Source of the DNA: Rhodobacter sp.
GTDB taxonomy: Bacteria; Pseudomonadota; Alphaproteobacteria; Rhodobacterales; Rhodobacteraceae
Direction: 5' to 3'
Assembly: GCA_020250125.1 (NCBI GenBank)
Contig: JADCEL010000054.1
Location: 1-64,000, forward strand
Length of the DNA: 64,000 nt
Shown here one piece after another: positions 1-48,532 of this stretch. A program made the translations under genes and the position numbers. The notes below the pieces were generated by a model. That model searched no databases. It was not told the DNA's origin and worked only from the letters and a program-made list of their open reading frames with translations. The first letter of the stretch is position 1. Each line of letters begins with the position of its first letter.

Positions 1-460
1 GCCCCTGCCACAGCACTGCGCTGGGATCAGGACCAGCCGGGGGCCACAGCCCCCGGCCAGCGCCCGACCCGCCACCGGCGGGCGCTTCCCGCCCGCCGGG
101 TCAGGCGCTGGCCTTTCGTGGTGCCTGGACCGACCGATCTACAGGGCACCGTGCCGCGCGGGCGGGGAAACGCGATGCGTTTCCTGGTCCCGCCCGGAGG
201 GGCGTTCTCCGGGATGCCCGCTCTCTCTGTCCGGGGCCATCGCCCCTGCCACATCGTTACGCGGGACTCAGGGCAGCAGGGGGGGCACAGCCCCCGGCGG
301 GTGCCTGGCCCCCGCCGGGCCGGGTGCCGGCCTTTCTTTGCGCTTGCAGGACGGGTCCTTATGCGCCCGCAACTGCCAGCCGCCTTTCCGGTGGATCAGC
401 GTGATTTTCCCGTCCGGCAGGCGTGCGACCTGCGTTTTCACCACCCCGCCAGGGGGCAAG
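1..460 (+). repeat. Dispersed hairpin-rich repeat, copy A (left end truncated by window)
   Basis: Bases 1-250 align with 46930-47180; bases ~236-455 align with ~47161-47425. Shared blocks include CGCCCCTGCCACA, GGCCAGCGCCCGACCCG, CTGGCCTTTCGTGGTGCCTGGACC, GGAAACGCGATGCGTTTCC and CCCGGAGGGGCGTTCTCCGGG. Confidence 0.85.
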
Positions 461-1577: not shown

Positions 1578-1643
1578 CCCCCTTGTGCCGGAAGGGGGCG
1601 GCCCCTATTCCCGGCGGTGGGACACCCCTCCCCAACGGGGGGC
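1578..1643 (+). ncRNA. Structured serC leader (serC RNA motif-like)
   Basis: Perfect 7-bp hairpin CCCCCTT-gtgccgg-AAGGGGG (1578-1598), then a second C-rich/G-rich hairpin (1625-1643) ending ~20 nt before the serC ATG (1663). Confidence 0.55.
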
Positions 1644-1662
1644 ATTTATCTGGAAGGATACC

Positions 1663-2820
1663 ATGTCTGATCTTCAGGCCCCGGCTGTGCGCCCGGCAAA
1701 TCCGCGCTTTTCCTCTGGCCCCTGTGCCAAGGTTCCCGGCTTTTCCCTTGATCTTCTGGCAGATGCGCCGCTTGGCCGGTCGCACCGGGCCGCTGTCGGC
1801 AAGGCGAAGCTGAAGCAGGCCATCGACCTGACCCGCAGCATCCTGGGCGTGCCTGCCGGTTACCGCATCGCCATCGTGCCCGCATCCGATACCGGGGCTG
1901 TGGAAATGGCGATGTGGTCGCTGCTGGGCGCGCGCCCGGTGGAAATGCTGGCCTGGGAAAGCTTCGGCGAAGGCTGGGTGACGGATGCGGTGAAGCAGCT
2001 GAAACTTGAGGCCACCGTGCGCAGGGCCCCCTACGGCGGGATCGTGGATTTCGGGTCCGTCGATTTCGGCCGCGACGTGGTCTTTACCTGGAACGGCACC
2101 ACCAGCGGCGTGCGCCTGCCGGATGGCAACGCCATTCCCGCTGGCCGCGCCGGCCTGACGATCTGCGATGCCACCAGTGCGGCCTTTGCAATGGACCTGC
2201 CCTGGGACAAGCTTGATGTCACCACCTTTTCCTGGCAGAAGGTGCTGGGCGGCGAAGGCGCGCATGGCATGCTGATCCTGTCGCCCCGCGCGGTGGAGCG
2301 GCTGGAAACCCATACCCCCGCCTGGCCGCTGCCCAAGCTGTTCCGCCTGACCAGGGGCGGCAAGATCACCGAAGGGCTGTTTGAAGGCGAGACGATCAAC
2401 ACCCCGTCAATGCTGGCGGTCGAGGATTACCTGGTTGCCCTGCGCTGGGCGCAGTCCATCGGCGGGCTGCCCGCGCTGATCAGCCGCGCCAGCGCGAATG
2501 CCGCGACCGTGGATGAATTCGTGGCGGCCCGGCCGTGGATCGAAAACCTTGCGGTTGACCCTGCAACAGCCTCTACCACCTCGGTCTGCCTGCGCTTCAC
2601 CGACCCGCGCATCCCCGATGGCGCGGCCTTTGCCAGGGCGGTGGCAAAGCGTCTGGAAAAGGCAGGGGCCGCCTTTGACCTCGGTGCCCACCGCGATGCC
2701 CCGCCGGGCCTGCGCATCTGGTGCGGCTCGACCGTGGAACAGTCTGACGTGGCGGCGCTGATGCCCTGGATCGACTGGGCCTTTCACACCGAGATTGCCG
2801 GGCTTGCCAAGGCGGCATGA
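1663..2820 (+). CDS. serC: Phosphoserine aminotransferase SerC
   Basis: [27 protein letters not shown]; aminotransferase class V features ([16 protein letters not shown]). Confidence 0.95.
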
Positions 2821-17154: not shown

Positions 17155-17275
17155 TGTGCCCCCGAGGCGGGCCAGGAAACGCACGGCGCTTCCCCCGCCC
17201 GCGCGGGACGGTGCCCCGCAGACCGCCAGGTCCAGGCACAACGGCAGGCCAGCGCCGGCCGGGGGCGTGGCGCGG
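17155..17275 (-). repeat. Dispersed hairpin-rich repeat, copy C (inverted, partial)
   Basis: Reverse complement reads GCTGGCCTGCCGTTGTGCCTGGACCTGGCGGTCTGCGGGGCACCGTCCCGCGCGGGCGGGGGAAGCGCCGTGCGTTTCCTGGCCCGCC, matching copies A and B. Confidence 0.8.
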
Positions 17276-17367
17276 GCGGACGCGCCGCACGCGCACCGCA
17301 GGGCTTGGGCGATGGCCCCGGCCGCAACACGCGGGGCACGCAGGCGGAAAGGTTGCCCGCCTTCCGT

Positions 17368-18396
17368 TCAGGCCGCCCATGCGGCCGGCACGTTGTCTGC
17401 ACCCGCCTGAGCGACCCGCAGCACGATCTTCCCGATATGGCCGGAGCTTTCCATGCGGCGGTGCGCCTCTGCCGCGTCTTCCAGAACGTATTCCGAATCC
17501 AGCACCACCCGCAGCTTGCCGTCCGCGATCATCGGCCAGACGTGCTGTTCCAGTTCGGCGGCATAGCCCGCTTTTGCCAGATCAGACTGCGGGCGCAGGG
17601 TGCTGCCGGTGATGGTCAGCCGCCGCATCATCACCTCGGCAAAGTTCAGTTCCACCTTCGCCCCGCTCAGAAAGGCGATCTGCACCAGCCGCCCGTCATC
17701 GGCCAGCGCCTTGACATTGCGCGGCAGGTAAGTCCCGCCGACCATGTCCAGGATCAGGTTCGCGCCCCCTTCGGCGCGCAGGGTGTCGACGAAATCCTGG
17801 GTCCGGTAGTTGATTGCGCGCTCTGCCCCCAGCGCCAGACAGGCTGCGCATTTGTCATCCGACCCGGCGGTGGCAAAGACCCGCGCGCCCAGGGCGGCGG
17901 CAATCTGGATTGCGGTGGTGCCGATGCCGGAGGATCCGCCATGCACCAGAAACCGCTCGCCCGCCCGCAGCCCGCCGCGCAGCACCATGTTCGACCAGAC
18001 GGTGAAGCAGGTTTCGGGCAGGCAGGCCGCCGCCTTCAGGTCCATCCCCGCAGGAACAGGCAGGGCATGGGCGGCATTCGTGACCGCATATTCGGCATAG
18101 CCGCCGCCCGGCAGCAGCGCGCAGACCCTGTCGCCGATCTGCCAGCGCGCAACGCCCGGCCCCACCTCCACCACCACGCCCGCCGCCTCCAGCCCCGGCA
18201 GGGGCGAGGCATTGGCAGGCGGCGCATAGGCCCCGGCCCGCTGCAGCGCATCCGGGCGGTTGACGCCCGCATAGGCCACGCGGATCACGATCTGGCCGTG
18301 GCCGGGAACCGGCACGGGCAGGATCACCGGCGTCAGGACCTCCGGCCCGCCGGGTTCGGAAATTGCCACGGCGCGCATCGTATGGGACAGGGCCAT
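17368..18396 (-). CDS. NAD(P)H-quinone oxidoreductase (zinc-type alcohol dehydrogenase superfamily)
   Basis: MRAVAISEPGGPEVL; VHGGSSGIGTTAIQIA; NYRTQDFVDTLR. Confidence 0.92.
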   Translation of the reverse strand: MALSHTMRAVAISEPGGPEVLTPVILPVPVPGHGQIVIRVAYAGVNRPDALQRAGAYAPPANASPLPGLEAAGVVVEVGPGVARWQIGDRVCALLPGGGYAEYAVTNAAHALPVPAGMDLKAAACLPETCFTVWSNMVLRGGLRAGERFLVHGGSSGIGTTAIQIAAALGARVFATAGSDDKCAACLALGAERAINYRTQDFVDTLRAEGGANLILDMVGGTYLPRNVKALADDGRLVQIAFLSGAKVELNFAEVMMRRLTITGSTLRPQSDLAKAGYAAELEQHVWPMIADGKLRVVLDSEYVLEDAAEAHRRMESSGHIGKIVLRVAQAGADNVPAAWAA

Positions 18397-19249: not shown

Positions 19250-19456
19250 ATGCAGGTCAGCGTTCGCGACAACAATGTCGATCAGGCCCTTCGGGCCCTG
19301 AAGAAAAAGCTCCAGCGCGAGGGTGTGTTTCGGGAAATGAAGCTCAAGCAGCATTTCGAGAAACCCTCGGTCAAGAAAGCCCGCGAGAAAGCCGAAGCCG
19401 TGCGCCGTGCGCGCAAGCTCGCGCGCAAGAAATTGCAGCGGGAAGGCGGCCTCTGA
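19250..19456 (+). CDS. rpsU: 30S ribosomal protein S21
   Basis: [33 protein letters not shown]... Confidence 0.97.
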
Positions 19457-19570
19457 GCCTTTTCTGAACTCTGTCGCCGCAAGGCGAAGGGCGGGGCAAC
19501 CCGCCATCCGATCAACCCCCGTGCCTTGGCCCGGGGGTTTTTCGTTGCCCTGTCTGAAGGCACATTGTGC
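19435..19570 (+). repeat. Direct repeat copy 1: rpsU 3' end plus terminator
   Basis: 136 bp matching 21850-21985 with four mismatches. Confidence 0.95.
19514..19542 (+). terminator. Rho-independent terminator of rpsU
   Basis: AACCCCC...GGGGGTTTTT. Confidence 0.85.
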
Positions 19571-21801: not shown

Positions 21802-21849
21802 CAACCCACGGAAGGGGCGATCTGAAGATACATGGTGCTGCGCGAAACC

Positions 21850-21985
21850 GCAGCGGGAAGGCGGCCTCTGAGCCATTTCTGAACTCTGTCGCCGCAAGGC
21901 GAAGGGCGGGGCAACCCGCCATCCGATCAACCCCCGTGCCCCGGCCCAGGGGTTTTTCGTTGCCCTGTCTGAAGGCACATTGTGC
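21850..21985 (+). repeat. Direct repeat copy 2: rpsU 3'-end fragment plus terminator
   Basis: 136-bp near-identical copy of 19435-19570, 2.4 kb downstream. Confidence 0.95.
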
Positions 21986-27801: not shown

Positions 27802-27825
27802 CAGGGTGCCGAAAAGGCAGTCCCG

Positions 27826-29133
27826 CTAACGGCCAAGGCAGGTGGCCAGGCGGCGGAAGCTGCCTTCAATTCCGTCCCGGGCATCCTCTGCCAGAAAACC
27901 GTCCAGCGCGGGCCAGACCTTGATCGCCCGGTCGATCAGCGGGTCCGATCCGGCAACGTAAAGCCCGGCCTGGATCATCAGTTCCGCCCTGTCATAGGCC
28001 CCCAGCAGCTTGCGCGCCTCGGCGATCAGCTGGTTTTCGGCTTCTGACGCCGCCGCAGGCAGGCTGCGCGAGACCGAGCGCAGCAGGTCAACCGCCGGGT
28101 AGCGCCCGCGTTCCGCAATCCTGCGGTCCAGAACGACATGCCCGTCCAGCGCGCCGCGCAGGATGTCGGCCACGGGTTCTTCCATGTCAGAGCCGGGCAC
28201 CAGAACGGAAAACACGCCCGTGATGTCACCGCTGCCTTGCGGACCCGGCCCGGCCCGTTCGGCAAGCGACATGATCAAATGCGCAACCGACGGCGGATAG
28301 CCGCGCAGGCTGGCCTCTTCGCCGGCGGCAAGGGCCACTTCGCGATGGGCTTCGGCAAACCGCGTGACCGAATCCGCCAGGAACAGCACATGCAGGCCCT
28401 GATCGCGAAAGTGTTCGGCCACCGCCATGGCCGCCCAGGCGCAGCGCCGCCGGATCAGCGGCGACTGATCCGAGGTTGCCGCCACGATGACCGACCGCTT
28501 CATGCCCGCGGTCCCCAGCACGGTTTCGGTGAAATCGCGCAGTTCCCGGCCGCGCTCGCCGATCAGGGCAATCACCACCACATCGGCAGCAACGCCCCGC
28601 GCGAATTTGGCAAGAAGCGATGATTTTCCAACACCGGAGCCTGCGAAAAGACCGATGCGCTGGCCCTGCACCAGCGGAAGAAGGGTGTCGAAGGCCGCAA
28701 CCCCGGTGGACAGCCGCGCGCCCAGTCTGCCGCGTGACGCCGCCGGCGGGGCCGCGCCCCGCAGCCCGCGGGGCCGCGACCCGCGCAGCAAAGGGCGGCC
28801 GTCCAGCGGTGCGCCGAAGGGATCAATGATCCGGCCGATCCAATGGTCATCCGGCGCCAGGTCTGCCCGGCCCAGCAGTTCGACCGCGTCACCGATGGCC
28901 AGACCTTCGATCGCGCCATCGGACAGGACAGTGACCTGATCGCGCGCCAGATTAAGAACCTCGCCCCCCACGGGGCCGGTTCTTGCCAGAATCATCACCC
29001 GGTCGCCCAGCGCGGCCACGTCCGACAAACCGCTGACCGACAGGGTTCCACGACCGATCCCGACAACCTGCCCGACACGATAAACCTTTGAAACATAAAT
29101 TATTTCTGCGCGAAGTGGGCTGAATACATCCAT
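27826..29133 (-). CDS. fliI: Flagellum-specific ATP synthase FliI
   Basis: Walker A GLFAGSGVGKSSLLAKFARG; ALIGERGRELRDF; LFLADSVTRFAEAHREVAL. Confidence 0.94.
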   Translation of the reverse strand: MDVFSPLRAEIIYVSKVYRVGQVVGIGRGTLSVSGLSDVAALGDRVMILARTGPVGGEVLNLARDQVTVLSDGAIEGLAIGDAVELLGRADLAPDDHWIGRIIDPFGAPLDGRPLLRGSRPRGLRGAAPPAASRGRLGARLSTGVAAFDTLLPLVQGQRIGLFAGSGVGKSSLLAKFARGVAADVVVIALIGERGRELRDFTETVLGTAGMKRSVIVAATSDQSPLIRRRCAWAAMAVAEHFRDQGLHVLFLADSVTRFAEAHREVALAAGEEASLRGYPPSVAHLIMSLAERAGPGPQGSGDITGVFSVLVPGSDMEEPVADILRGALDGHVVLDRRIAERGRYPAVDLLRSVSRSLPAAASEAENQLIAEARKLLGAYDRAELMIQAGLYVAGSDPLIDRAIKVWPALDGFLAEDARDGIEGSFRRLATCLGR

Positions 29134-45969: not shown

Positions 45970-46688
45970 TGCGCGCAATTGCGCTTGCCCTGCTGGTGGC
46001 CGTGCTTGCCGGCCCGGTGGCGGCACAGGATATTGCGGTGAATTTCGGTGGCGATGCCAATCTGGCGACGCGCAGCATTCAGCTGATCGCACTGATCACC
46101 CTGCTCAGCCTGGTTCCGGGGCTGGCGGTCATGGTCACCTGTTTTCCCTTCATCGTCACCGTGCTGTCCATTCTGCGTCAGGCGATCGGGTTGCAGCAGG
46201 CCCCCCCGAACATGCTGATCGTCACTCTGGCCCTGTTTCTGACCTGGTATGTCATGGACCCGGTGTTTACCGAGGCCTGGGTCAACGGGCTGGAACCGTT
46301 CACAACCGGCCAGAGCGATCTGGAGGCGGCCCTGCCTGCCACCGTCGCCCCGTTCCGGGTCTTCATGGCGGCCCGGCTGGACCCCGAAACCTTCGCCGCG
46401 CTGCAGGCGCTGCGTCCGGGTCCGGCACCCGGCGCGATGGTGGATGCGCCGCTGTCGGTTCTGGTGCCGTCCTTTCTGCTCAGCGAGATACAGCGGGCGT
46501 TCGAGATCGGCTTCCTGATTTTCCTGCCCTTTCTCATCATCGATCTGGTCGTCGCTGCCGTGCTGATGTCGATGGGCATGATGATGGTGCCGCCGGCCAT
46601 CGTCTCGATGCCGTTCAAGCTTGCCTTCTTCGTTGTGGCAGATGGCTGGAGCCTGATCTCCGGGGCACTTGTCAGAAGCTATCTCTGA
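45969..46688 (+). CDS. fliP: Flagellar biosynthetic protein FliP
   Basis: LALFLTWYVMDPVF; FLIIDLVVAAVLMSMGMMMVPPAIVSMPFKLAFFVVADGW. Confidence 0.95.
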   Translation: MRAIALALLVAVLAGPVAAQDIAVNFGGDANLATRSIQLIALITLLSLVPGLAVMVTCFPFIVTVLSILRQAIGLQQAPPNMLIVTLALFLTWYVMDPVFTEAWVNGLEPFTTGQSDLEAALPATVAPFRVFMAARLDPETFAALQALRPGPAPGAMVDAPLSVLVPSFLLSEIQRAFEIGFLIFLPFLIIDLVVAAVLMSMGMMMVPPAIVSMPFKLAFFVVADGWSLISGALVRSYL

Positions 46689-46699
46689 CAAGGTTCCGG

Positions 46700-47430
46700 A
46701 AAGGCGCCAGCCGCATGGACCGCCGGCCGGAAAACAGGAAACGCTTCCGCCTGCGCACCTTGCGCGCGCCCGCCGCGGTCTGGCCGGGGCGATCGCCCCG
46801 GCCCTGCGCGGCGCGTGCAGCACGCCCGCCGGGGGCCTAAACCCCAGGCCAAGCGCCGACCCCGCCCCCGGCGGGCGCTGCGCCCGCGCTGACGAAAGCA
46901 CCTTCACCGCTTCAATGGCAGGGGCCATCGCCCCTGCCACAGCGCCACGCCGGGATCAGGACCAGCCGGGGGCCAAAGCCCCCGGCCAGCGCCCGACCCG
47001 CCCCCGGCGGGCGCTTCCCGCCCGCCGGGTCGGGCGCTGGCCTTTCGTGGTGCCTGGACCCACCGGTCTGCAGGGCACCGTCGCGCACATGCGGGGGAAA
47101 CGCGGGTCGCGTTTCCTTTTCCCGCCCGGAGGGGCGTTCTCCGGGACCCGGTCTCTCTGGCAGGGGCCATCGCCCCTGCCACAGCGCCACGCTGCCCCTT
47201 GCCCGCCGGGGACCAAAGCCCCCGGCCAGCGCCCGGCCAGCCCTTGGCGGGCGCTGGCCTGCGTTGCGCTTGGGGGAACGGTCCTCATGCGACCGTGGTC
47301 TGTCACCGGGCGGGGAAACGCGGTGCGTTTCCTGATCCGCCCGCAACGGCAAGCCGCTTTTCCGGCAGATCAGGAAATTCTTCCCGTCCGGAAAGCGGCG
47401 GGGAGGCTTTCTCAACACCCTGCCGGGGTC
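46700..47430 (+). repeat. Dispersed hairpin-rich repeat, copy B (best preserved, several units)
   Basis: GGCAGGGGC-catc-GCCCCTGCC at 46917 and again at ~47159; 15-bp perfect stem CCAGCGCCCGACCCG/CGGGTCGGGCGCTGG (46986-47040); homologous to 1-455 and 17155-17275. Confidence 0.88.
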
Positions 47431-47473: not shown

Positions 47474-48532
47474 TCAGCGCAGGCGCAGGCCGCTGTCGGA
47501 AAAGAACAAGGCGTCCTTCGGATCAAACCGGATTCCGGTCATGCCGCCCATCTTCACATCGGGGTTGCTGTGCGATTCCACCACCAGCTTTTCGCCGGTC
47601 GGCGCCGTCAGATGGATATAGGACACCCCGCCCAGCGCCTCGGTCATTTCCACCCGGTGTGTCTTGCCGGTTGCGTCCAGTGCAAGATGCTGCGGGCGCA
47701 GGCCAAGCGAGACCTTGGCCCCGCTGCCGGGCAAGGCGACAGTGACGGGCACAGAACCCGACGCAAGCCCGGGTGCGCTGACCGCCCCCTTTTCAGTCAC
47801 CGCCGCCACGAAATTCATCGACGGCGAGCCGATGAACCCGGCGACGAACCTGTTGTCGGGGTCATGGTACAGTTCCAGCGGGCGGCCCACCTGCTCTACC
47901 CGGCCCGCGCGCAGCACCACGATCTTGTCGGCCAGCGTCATCGCCTCGACCTGATCATGGGTGACATAGATCATCGTGGCCCCGATTTCGCGGTGCAGGC
48001 GCGCAATCTCGACGCGCATTTCCACGCGCAACTCGGCGTCCAGGTTGGACAGGGGTTCATCGAACAGGAACACCTCCGGCCCGCGCACGATGGCACGCCC
48101 GATCGCCACGCGCTGGCGCTGGCCCCCGGACAGCGCCTTGGGCTTGCGCGTCAGGTAATCGTCCAGCTTCAGGATGCGGCTGGCCTCCCTGACTTTGCGG
48201 GCGATCTGATCCTTCGGATGGCCGGTCATCTTCAGGCCGAATCCCATGTTTTCGGCGACCGTCATGTGCGGATAAAGCGCGTAGGTCTGAAACACCATCG
48301 CAACGCCGCGTTCCGACGGATCAGCACGGGTCACGTCGCGCGTGCCGATGCGGATCGTGCCTTCGCTGGTTTCTTCCAGCCCGGCGACCATCCGCAGCAG
48401 GGTCGATTTTCCGCAGCCGGACGGGCCGACGAAAACGCAGAACTCGCCGTCCCCGACCGTCAGATCAACGCCATGGATCACCTGCGCATCGCCGAAGCGC
48501 TTGATCACGCGCTGCAAAGTCACTTCCGACAT
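47474..48532 (-). CDS. Sugar ABC transporter ATP-binding protein (UgpC/MsmK family)
   Basis: [60 protein letters not shown]. Confidence 0.95.

What the first reader, a model, noticed from the sequence alone, without database searches (positions are those of the whole stretch)
46700..47430. Repeat copy B: tandem units with stem-preserving variation
Contains at least two full units, each starting GGCAGGGGC-catc-GCCCCTGCC (46917 and ~47159), plus a degenerate GGGGCGATCGCCCC unit near 46790. The GGAAACGC stem varies between units (GGAAACGCG-ggt-CGCGTTTCC, GGAAACGC-ggt-GCGTTTCC, and GGAAGCGC-cgt-GCGTTTCC in copy C) while pairing is kept through extension or G-U. This suggests selection on structure or a transposition mechanism that needs the hairpins.
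Basis: partly seen in the sequence, partly recalled or inferred. Interest (0 to 1): 0.72.

Follow-up and report, generated by a model that had tools for sequence, protein, structure and literature searches.

The report
Jumping DNA carrying tandem hairpin repeats
The repeat is one of some forty or more copies per genome of a small mobile DNA element of Rhodobacter-like bacteria that cannot move by itself: two fixed ends enclose one to six 240-base hairpin-rich units, and it sits mostly just behind genes; its ends stay with their locus while the units inside seem to be swapped between loci.

Summary
In detail: window 46917 and 47159 start two ~240-nt head-to-tail units, preceded by a degenerate unit from ~46785. 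The interpretation (REP elements, RAYT transposase, selected stems) is mostly not supported.

The repeat is the inside of a larger element, 46689-47422, between convergent fliP and ugpC-type genes: a ~100-nt left end, tandem units and a ~100-nt right end, bounded by inverted repeats CAGGGTGCTGAAA. Some 40 loci per genome occur in four related Rhodobacter drafts; three other congeners lack the ends. RAYT is absent from all 12 genomes searched. Decayed IS5-family insertion sequences with the same ~15-nt ends lie in the same genomes, so this is best read as a non-autonomous (MITE-type) element moved by an IS5-family transposase, built like pneumococcal BOX and Porphyromonas BrickBuilt. A gene's stop codon abuts the end exactly in 24 of 73 gene-facing ends.

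Covariation is real mainly in hairpin I, not in the GGAAACGC stem cited. Unexpected: between species the ends match their orthologous element (40 of 50 comparisons; 3 expected) but the units do not (11 of 131; 4.4 expected). Units apparently exchange between loci while the shells stay. Short-read assembly error is the main caveat.

The parts
46689..47422 (+). whole element (copy B): left end + one partial unit + two full units + right end
   Evidence: ends located by alignment with the ends of other loci; flanked by fliP (stop TGA 46686-46688) and a convergent ugpC-type gene (stop at 47474)
46689..46784 (+). left end (LE); terminal inverted repeat CAAGGTTCCGGAAAGGCGCC, directly after the fliP stop codon
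   Evidence: the LE pattern occurs 28, 32, 17 and 37 times in the four array genomes and 0 times in three array-less congeners
46785..46916 (+). partial, degenerate first unit (model positions 3-105) with hairpin I GGCCGGGGCGATCGCCCCGGCC at 46782-46803
46917..47158 (+). full unit 1, hairpins I (46917-46938), II (46965-46986), III (46984-47042), IV (47096-47116)
47159..47350 (+). full unit 2, terminal shorter type lacking the inner half of hairpin III; hairpin IV 47314-47332
47333..47422 (+). right end (RE), ends ...CTCAACACCCTG, the inverted counterpart of CAGGGTGCTGAAA
   Evidence: homologous ends at many other loci
1..448 (+). copy A of the element, truncated by the contig start; right end at 435-448
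17169..17406 (-). copy C: decayed element with part of one unit (model 115-202) and a decayed left end near 17340-17406; its flanking genes are convergent
   Evidence: nhmmer E 1.9e-18 for the unit piece

Best explanation
Copy B is one copy of a family of composite, non-autonomous mobile elements (MITE-type): LE - (about 240-nt four-hairpin unit) 1 to 6 times - RE, bounded by terminal inverted repeats CAGG(G/C)TGCTGAAAA. An IS5-family transposase (DUF772 + DDE), whose own insertion sequence has the same ~15-nt ends, most likely moved it in trans; that partner is now decayed in these genomes. Insertions survive between genes, mostly behind converging genes, because the IS5-type target (YTAR, and here also YTGA) contains stop codons and insertion inside genes is not tolerated; hence stop codons abut the ends exactly. 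After insertion the two ends evolve in place, while the internal units are exchanged between loci (ectopic recombination or conversion), and recombination between copies also rearranges the chromosome. Shown: anatomy, copy number, position, one filled/empty site pair, shared ends with IS5 relics, stable ends versus shuffled units (in draft assemblies). Inferred: mobilisation in trans, the target explanation and the exchange mechanism. No host function is needed.
For: Copies: 118 matches in the own genome, 57-80 in three congeners. Ends: conserved LE and RE outside the units with inverted termini; LE pattern in array genomes only, control 0. Empty/filled pair: G000 L059 carries an element behind a tRNA gene, G002 L225 does not. 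Partner: intact IS in another genus (L280) with ends CAGGCTGCTGAAAAAC / CAGGCCGCTGAAAAAG and a 396-aa IS5-family transposase (NF033581, E 4e-72; PF05598, PF01609); decayed homologues in G000, G001, G002, G005, most with such an end at a near-constant distance from the coding remnant. Target: CTAG on both sides of short elements with the same ends in G059 (L286, L289), TTAG on both sides of L157. Stop codons: distance exactly 0 in 24 of 73 gene-facing ends (18 TGA, 5 TAG, 1 TAA), none at 1-7 nt; fliP of array-less G006 ends at the same codon, so the stop is native. Context: 24 of 46 two-sided arrays between convergent genes against 4 of 28 window gaps. Ends versus units: best cross-species match is the orthologous element in 24/30 LE and 16/20 RE (chance 1.6 and 1.4) but 11/131 units (chance 4.4).
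Against: No intact autonomous partner was found in the array genomes, and IS and element share only the outer ~15 nt. Target-site duplications are not visible in most elements; flank CTGA/TCAG is more common than YTAR and looks inverted rather than duplicated. A single-unit version in another genus between two convergent genes (L035) could suggest a kept function. Most arrays touch contig ends of draft genomes, so interior units may be partly mis-assembled. Genes were called with a home-made codon model.
Confidence: 0.7

Rival explanations
1. REP/BIME-type repeats spread by a RAYT (Y1 HUH) transposase that recognises the hairpins.
For: Hairpin-rich, intergenic, high copy, mostly behind genes.
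Against: No PF01797 match in 12 genomes including four that carry arrays, control positive; 240-nt unit with four hairpins inside fixed ends with inverted termini; no GTAG foot in the unit consensus.
Confidence: 0.03
2. A functional 3'-end module (bidirectional transcription barrier, RNA-stability or topology element) kept by selection between convergent genes.
For: Strong convergent bias, stop codons exactly abutting, very stable folding on both strands, compensated changes in hairpin I, a single-unit relative in another genus at a convergent site.
Against: No U-tract terminators in the region; a site can lack it (G002 at the tRNA site; fliP in G003 and G006); unit number and content vary between orthologous loci; congeners without any copies; convergent bias is also seen for BOX, RUP and IS elements in pneumococcus (PMC3049150).
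Confidence: 0.15
3. Same MITE-type element, but the apparent unit exchange is an artefact of short-read assembly joining units of different arrays.
For: Drafts of 90-130 contigs with many arrays at contig ends.
Against: Units are only ~82% identical, so they are not hard to tell apart; the effect holds for the first unit next to the left end (3 of 57), close to unique sequence.
Confidence: 0.2
4. The orthologous loci were hit independently in different species, so unit differences reflect independent insertions.
For: Stop-codon sites are preferred targets.
Against: Left and right ends of orthologous loci are best matches of each other in 40 of 50 comparisons.
Confidence: 0.07

Closest known systems
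BrickBuilt MITE of Porphyromonas gingivalis (PMC4596501)
   Same: Leader - tandem repeats - tail, short terminal inverted repeats matching IS5-family insertion sequences of the host, intergenic, unit number varies between strains
   Different: Unit of 23 nt versus ~240 nt with four hairpins; 19 loci listed versus some 40 or more; sequence relation not tested; here ends and units behave differently between species
BOX elements of Streptococcus pneumoniae (PMC3049150)
   Same: boxA-(boxB)n-boxC architecture, terminal inverted repeats, variable number of central modules, over-represented between convergent genes
   Different: BOX elements are 67-637 bp, in a low-GC genome and linked to ISSpn2; the present elements are about 250-1300 bp, GC-rich and linked to IS5-family ends
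IS5-family insertion sequences of the NF033581 type (e.g. L280)
   Same: Outer ~15 nt CAGGCTGCTGAAAAA and YTAR-like flanks
   Different: They encode a DUF772/DDE transposase; the array elements encode none, and no internal similarity was seen
REP/BIME with RAYT
   Same: Intergenic, hairpin-rich, can be tandem
   Different: No RAYT, long unit, shell bounded by inverted repeats

Membership tests
MITE (non-autonomous DDE-type element) | terminal inverted repeats | tested here: met
   CAGGGTGCTGAAA at both ends in inverted orientation
MITE (non-autonomous DDE-type element) | no transposase gene inside | tested here: met
   no called gene inside any array
MITE (non-autonomous DDE-type element) | presence/absence at orthologous sites | tested here: met
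   L059 filled, L225 empty; one clean pair
MITE (non-autonomous DDE-type element) | target-site duplication | tested here: inconclusive
   TTAG/TTAG at L157; none visible in most of 16 two-ended elements; CTAG/CTAG in same-end elements of G059
MITE (non-autonomous DDE-type element) | ends shared with a transposase-bearing IS of the host lineage | tested here: met
   IS5-family relics with the same ends in array genomes; intact relative L280
REP/BIME-RAYT | RAYT (Y1_Tnp) in the genome | tested here: not met
   0 of 12 genomes, controls positive
REP/BIME-RAYT | short palindrome with a GTAG-type foot | tested here: not met
   unit consensus has no GTAG at the hairpin feet
BOX element | A-(B)n-C modular architecture | tested here: met
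   LE-(unit)n-RE, 1 to 5 units in complete loci, six in one array that reaches a contig end
BOX element | sequence homology to boxA/B/C | not tested
   not compared; the claim is likeness of build, not membership
structured RNA family | match to an Rfam family | tested here: not met
   only a serC leader elsewhere in the window

The most novel reading that the evidence does not exclude
The ends and the inside of one element have different inheritance: fixed shells mark old insertion sites, while the hairpin units are continually shuttled between some 40-50 loci by an efficient exchange process, giving a genome-wide pool of units that evolves as one.
Probability: 0.3. Interest if true: 0.62.

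Novelty: new variant of a known kind. Interest (0 to 1): 0.47.

Why it matters
It names a repeat family that takes up roughly 1% of these genomes (estimate: some 40-50 loci of about 700 bp in 3.3 Mb), sits at many of their assembly breaks and appears to seed rearrangements (the fliP-ugpC neighbourhood is split and inverted in one species). It also gives a rare case where exchange of repeat units between loci can be told apart from transposition, because the ends keep a record of the original insertion.

Tried and rejected
RAYT search: none. Rfam: nothing at the repeat. Intrinsic terminators: none, so a simple terminator is not supported. Autonomous partner with the full 27-nt left end: nearly every hit looked at leads into an array element, none into a transposase. 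Ends searched by BLAST in 298 family genomes: only weak short matches outside the genus. Selection on hairpins II-IV: too little covariation to claim. Local tandem duplication as the source of the units: rejected because units of one array are no more alike (0.817) than units of different arrays (0.822). Literature searches for a named repeat of this kind in Rhodobacter or Rhodobacteraceae gave none; only open-access papers are held. A direct look for duplicated target sites was mostly negative.

Full report
OBSERVATION. A unit profile finds one partial and two full units in 46785-47350. The unit folds far better than shuffles on both strands. The own draft genome (3.28 Mb, 99 contigs) holds 118 matches. 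Three congeners hold 57-80 matches of one unit; three others hold none or one weak match. The congeners are Rhodobacter sp. genomes assembled from metagenomes (record titles). After removing duplicates, 39, 48, 26 and 42 distinct array loci were sampled in the four genomes. Copy A lies at window 1-448, and copy C, decayed and on the minus strand, at about 17169-17406.

ANATOMY. Units repeat head to tail, mostly with a period of 235-251 nt. Complete loci mostly hold 1 to 4 units; the longest array seen, which reaches a contig end, has six. Each unit has hairpin I (GGCAGGGGC-catc-GCCCCTGCC), II (GCCGGGGGC-caaa-GCCCCCGGC), III (long, GGCCAGCGCCCG...CGGGCGCTGGCC) and IV (GGAAACGC-ggt-GCGTTTCC inside CGGGCGGG...CCCGCCCG). 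Outside the units most well-preserved loci have a fixed left end and a fixed right end that stop sharply. The termini are inverted copies of CAGG(G/C)TGCTGAAAA. Copy B therefore runs 46689-47422. No gene was called inside any array.

POSITION. Of 46 arrays with called genes on both sides, 24 lie between convergent genes, 14 in tandem and 8 between divergent genes; in the window 4 of 28 gaps of 50 bases or more are convergent. Gene calls are from a codon model trained on the window. Where a gene points at an end, its stop codon abuts the terminal repeat exactly in 24 of 73 cases (18 TGA, 5 TAG, 1 TAA), with no case at 1-7 nt. For fliP the stop codon is native: array-less G006 ends at the same codon. 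FliP and the UgpC-type ATPase were confirmed by NCBIfam.

MOBILITY. At a tRNA-Arg locus G000 carries an element (L059) and G002 does not (L225). The left-end pattern occurs 28, 32, 17 and 37 times in the four array genomes and never in three congeners without arrays; the reversed control pattern never occurs. No RAYT is found. A shorter end pattern led to an intact insertion sequence in another genus (L280), whose 396-aa protein is an IS5-family transposase. Decayed relatives of that protein lie in G000, G001, G002 and G005, most with an end such as CAGGCTGCTGAAGAAGTCGG about 60-80 nt before the first or 95-125 nt after the last matched codon. Short elements with the same ends in G059 are flanked on both sides by CTAG, and L157 by TTAG. 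IS5-type targets of this form contain TAG/TAA. In the window YTAR is rare (62 sites on both strands, 15 inside genes). This offers a reason for the stop-codon abutment. TGA is explained less well: it may be a substituted stop codon or part of the terminal repeat, and is left open.

ENDS VERSUS UNITS. In orthologous loci, defined by shared flanking proteins, the best cross-species match of an end lies in the orthologous element in 24 of 30 (LE) and 16 of 20 (RE) comparisons, against 1.6 and 1.4 by chance. For units it is 11 of 131 against 4.4 by chance, and the best orthologous unit is less similar (0.821) than the best unit elsewhere (0.875), although the latter is a maximum over more candidates. 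The first unit next to the left end behaves the same way (3 of 57, 1.5 expected). Within a genome, units of one array are no more alike than units of different arrays, and interior units are the most uniform class. The simplest reading is exchange of units between loci with the ends left in place. The caveat is assembly from short reads.

REARRANGEMENT. In G000, G002 and G005 the element sits between fliP and ugpC with different unit content. In G001 fliP with a left end, and ugpC with a right end, lie about 11 kb apart in inverted order, as expected from recombination between two copies. In a genus outside the four genomes a single-unit element (L035) sits between two convergent genes, with the right end clear and the left end decayed. 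Hairpin III alone recurs in several other genera.

COVARIATION. On 60 diverse units, 91.2% of cells pair, and 25 cells have changes on both sides against 9.1 in shuffles. Eighteen of these lie in hairpin I (columns 3-5), one in hairpin IV. Part of the hairpin I signal is a subtype (CCGGGGC...GCCCCGG) that may be one event. Palindrome repair within a strand could also keep arms matched, so this does not prove selection on RNA.

VERDICT. A real, abundant, composite non-autonomous element, new as a family as far as the searches reach, of a kind already known from BOX and BrickBuilt. Its most interesting feature is the contrast between stable ends and shuffled units, which needs long reads to confirm.

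Noticed in passing
window 19429-19570 and 21844-21985: A 142-nt direct repeat, 96% identical, made of what looks like a gene's last codons plus an intrinsic terminator (CCCCCGTGCC...GGGGGTTTTT), 2.4 kb apart.
   Followed up: partly
window 1615-1666 +: serC leader RNA (RF00517), 68.8 bits.
   Followed up: no
window 27802-27826: A lone terminal-repeat-like sequence CAGGGTGCCGAAAAGGCAGTCCC directly after a stop codon, in a 25-nt gap between convergent genes: possibly a deletion remnant of the same element.
   Followed up: no
own genome G000, many contigs: A large share of contig ends lie inside these arrays, so the repeat probably causes much of the fragmentation of these assemblies.
   Followed up: partly
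L286, L288, L289 (G059): Another genus has 18 hits to the same IS5-type ends and short 200-310-bp elements, two of them with CTAG on both sides: apparently a separate MITE family without these units.
   Followed up: partly
L150, L184 (G001): A different insertion sequence, whose transposase by eye resembles the ISAs1 family (not tested), abuts or interrupts arrays.
   Followed up: no
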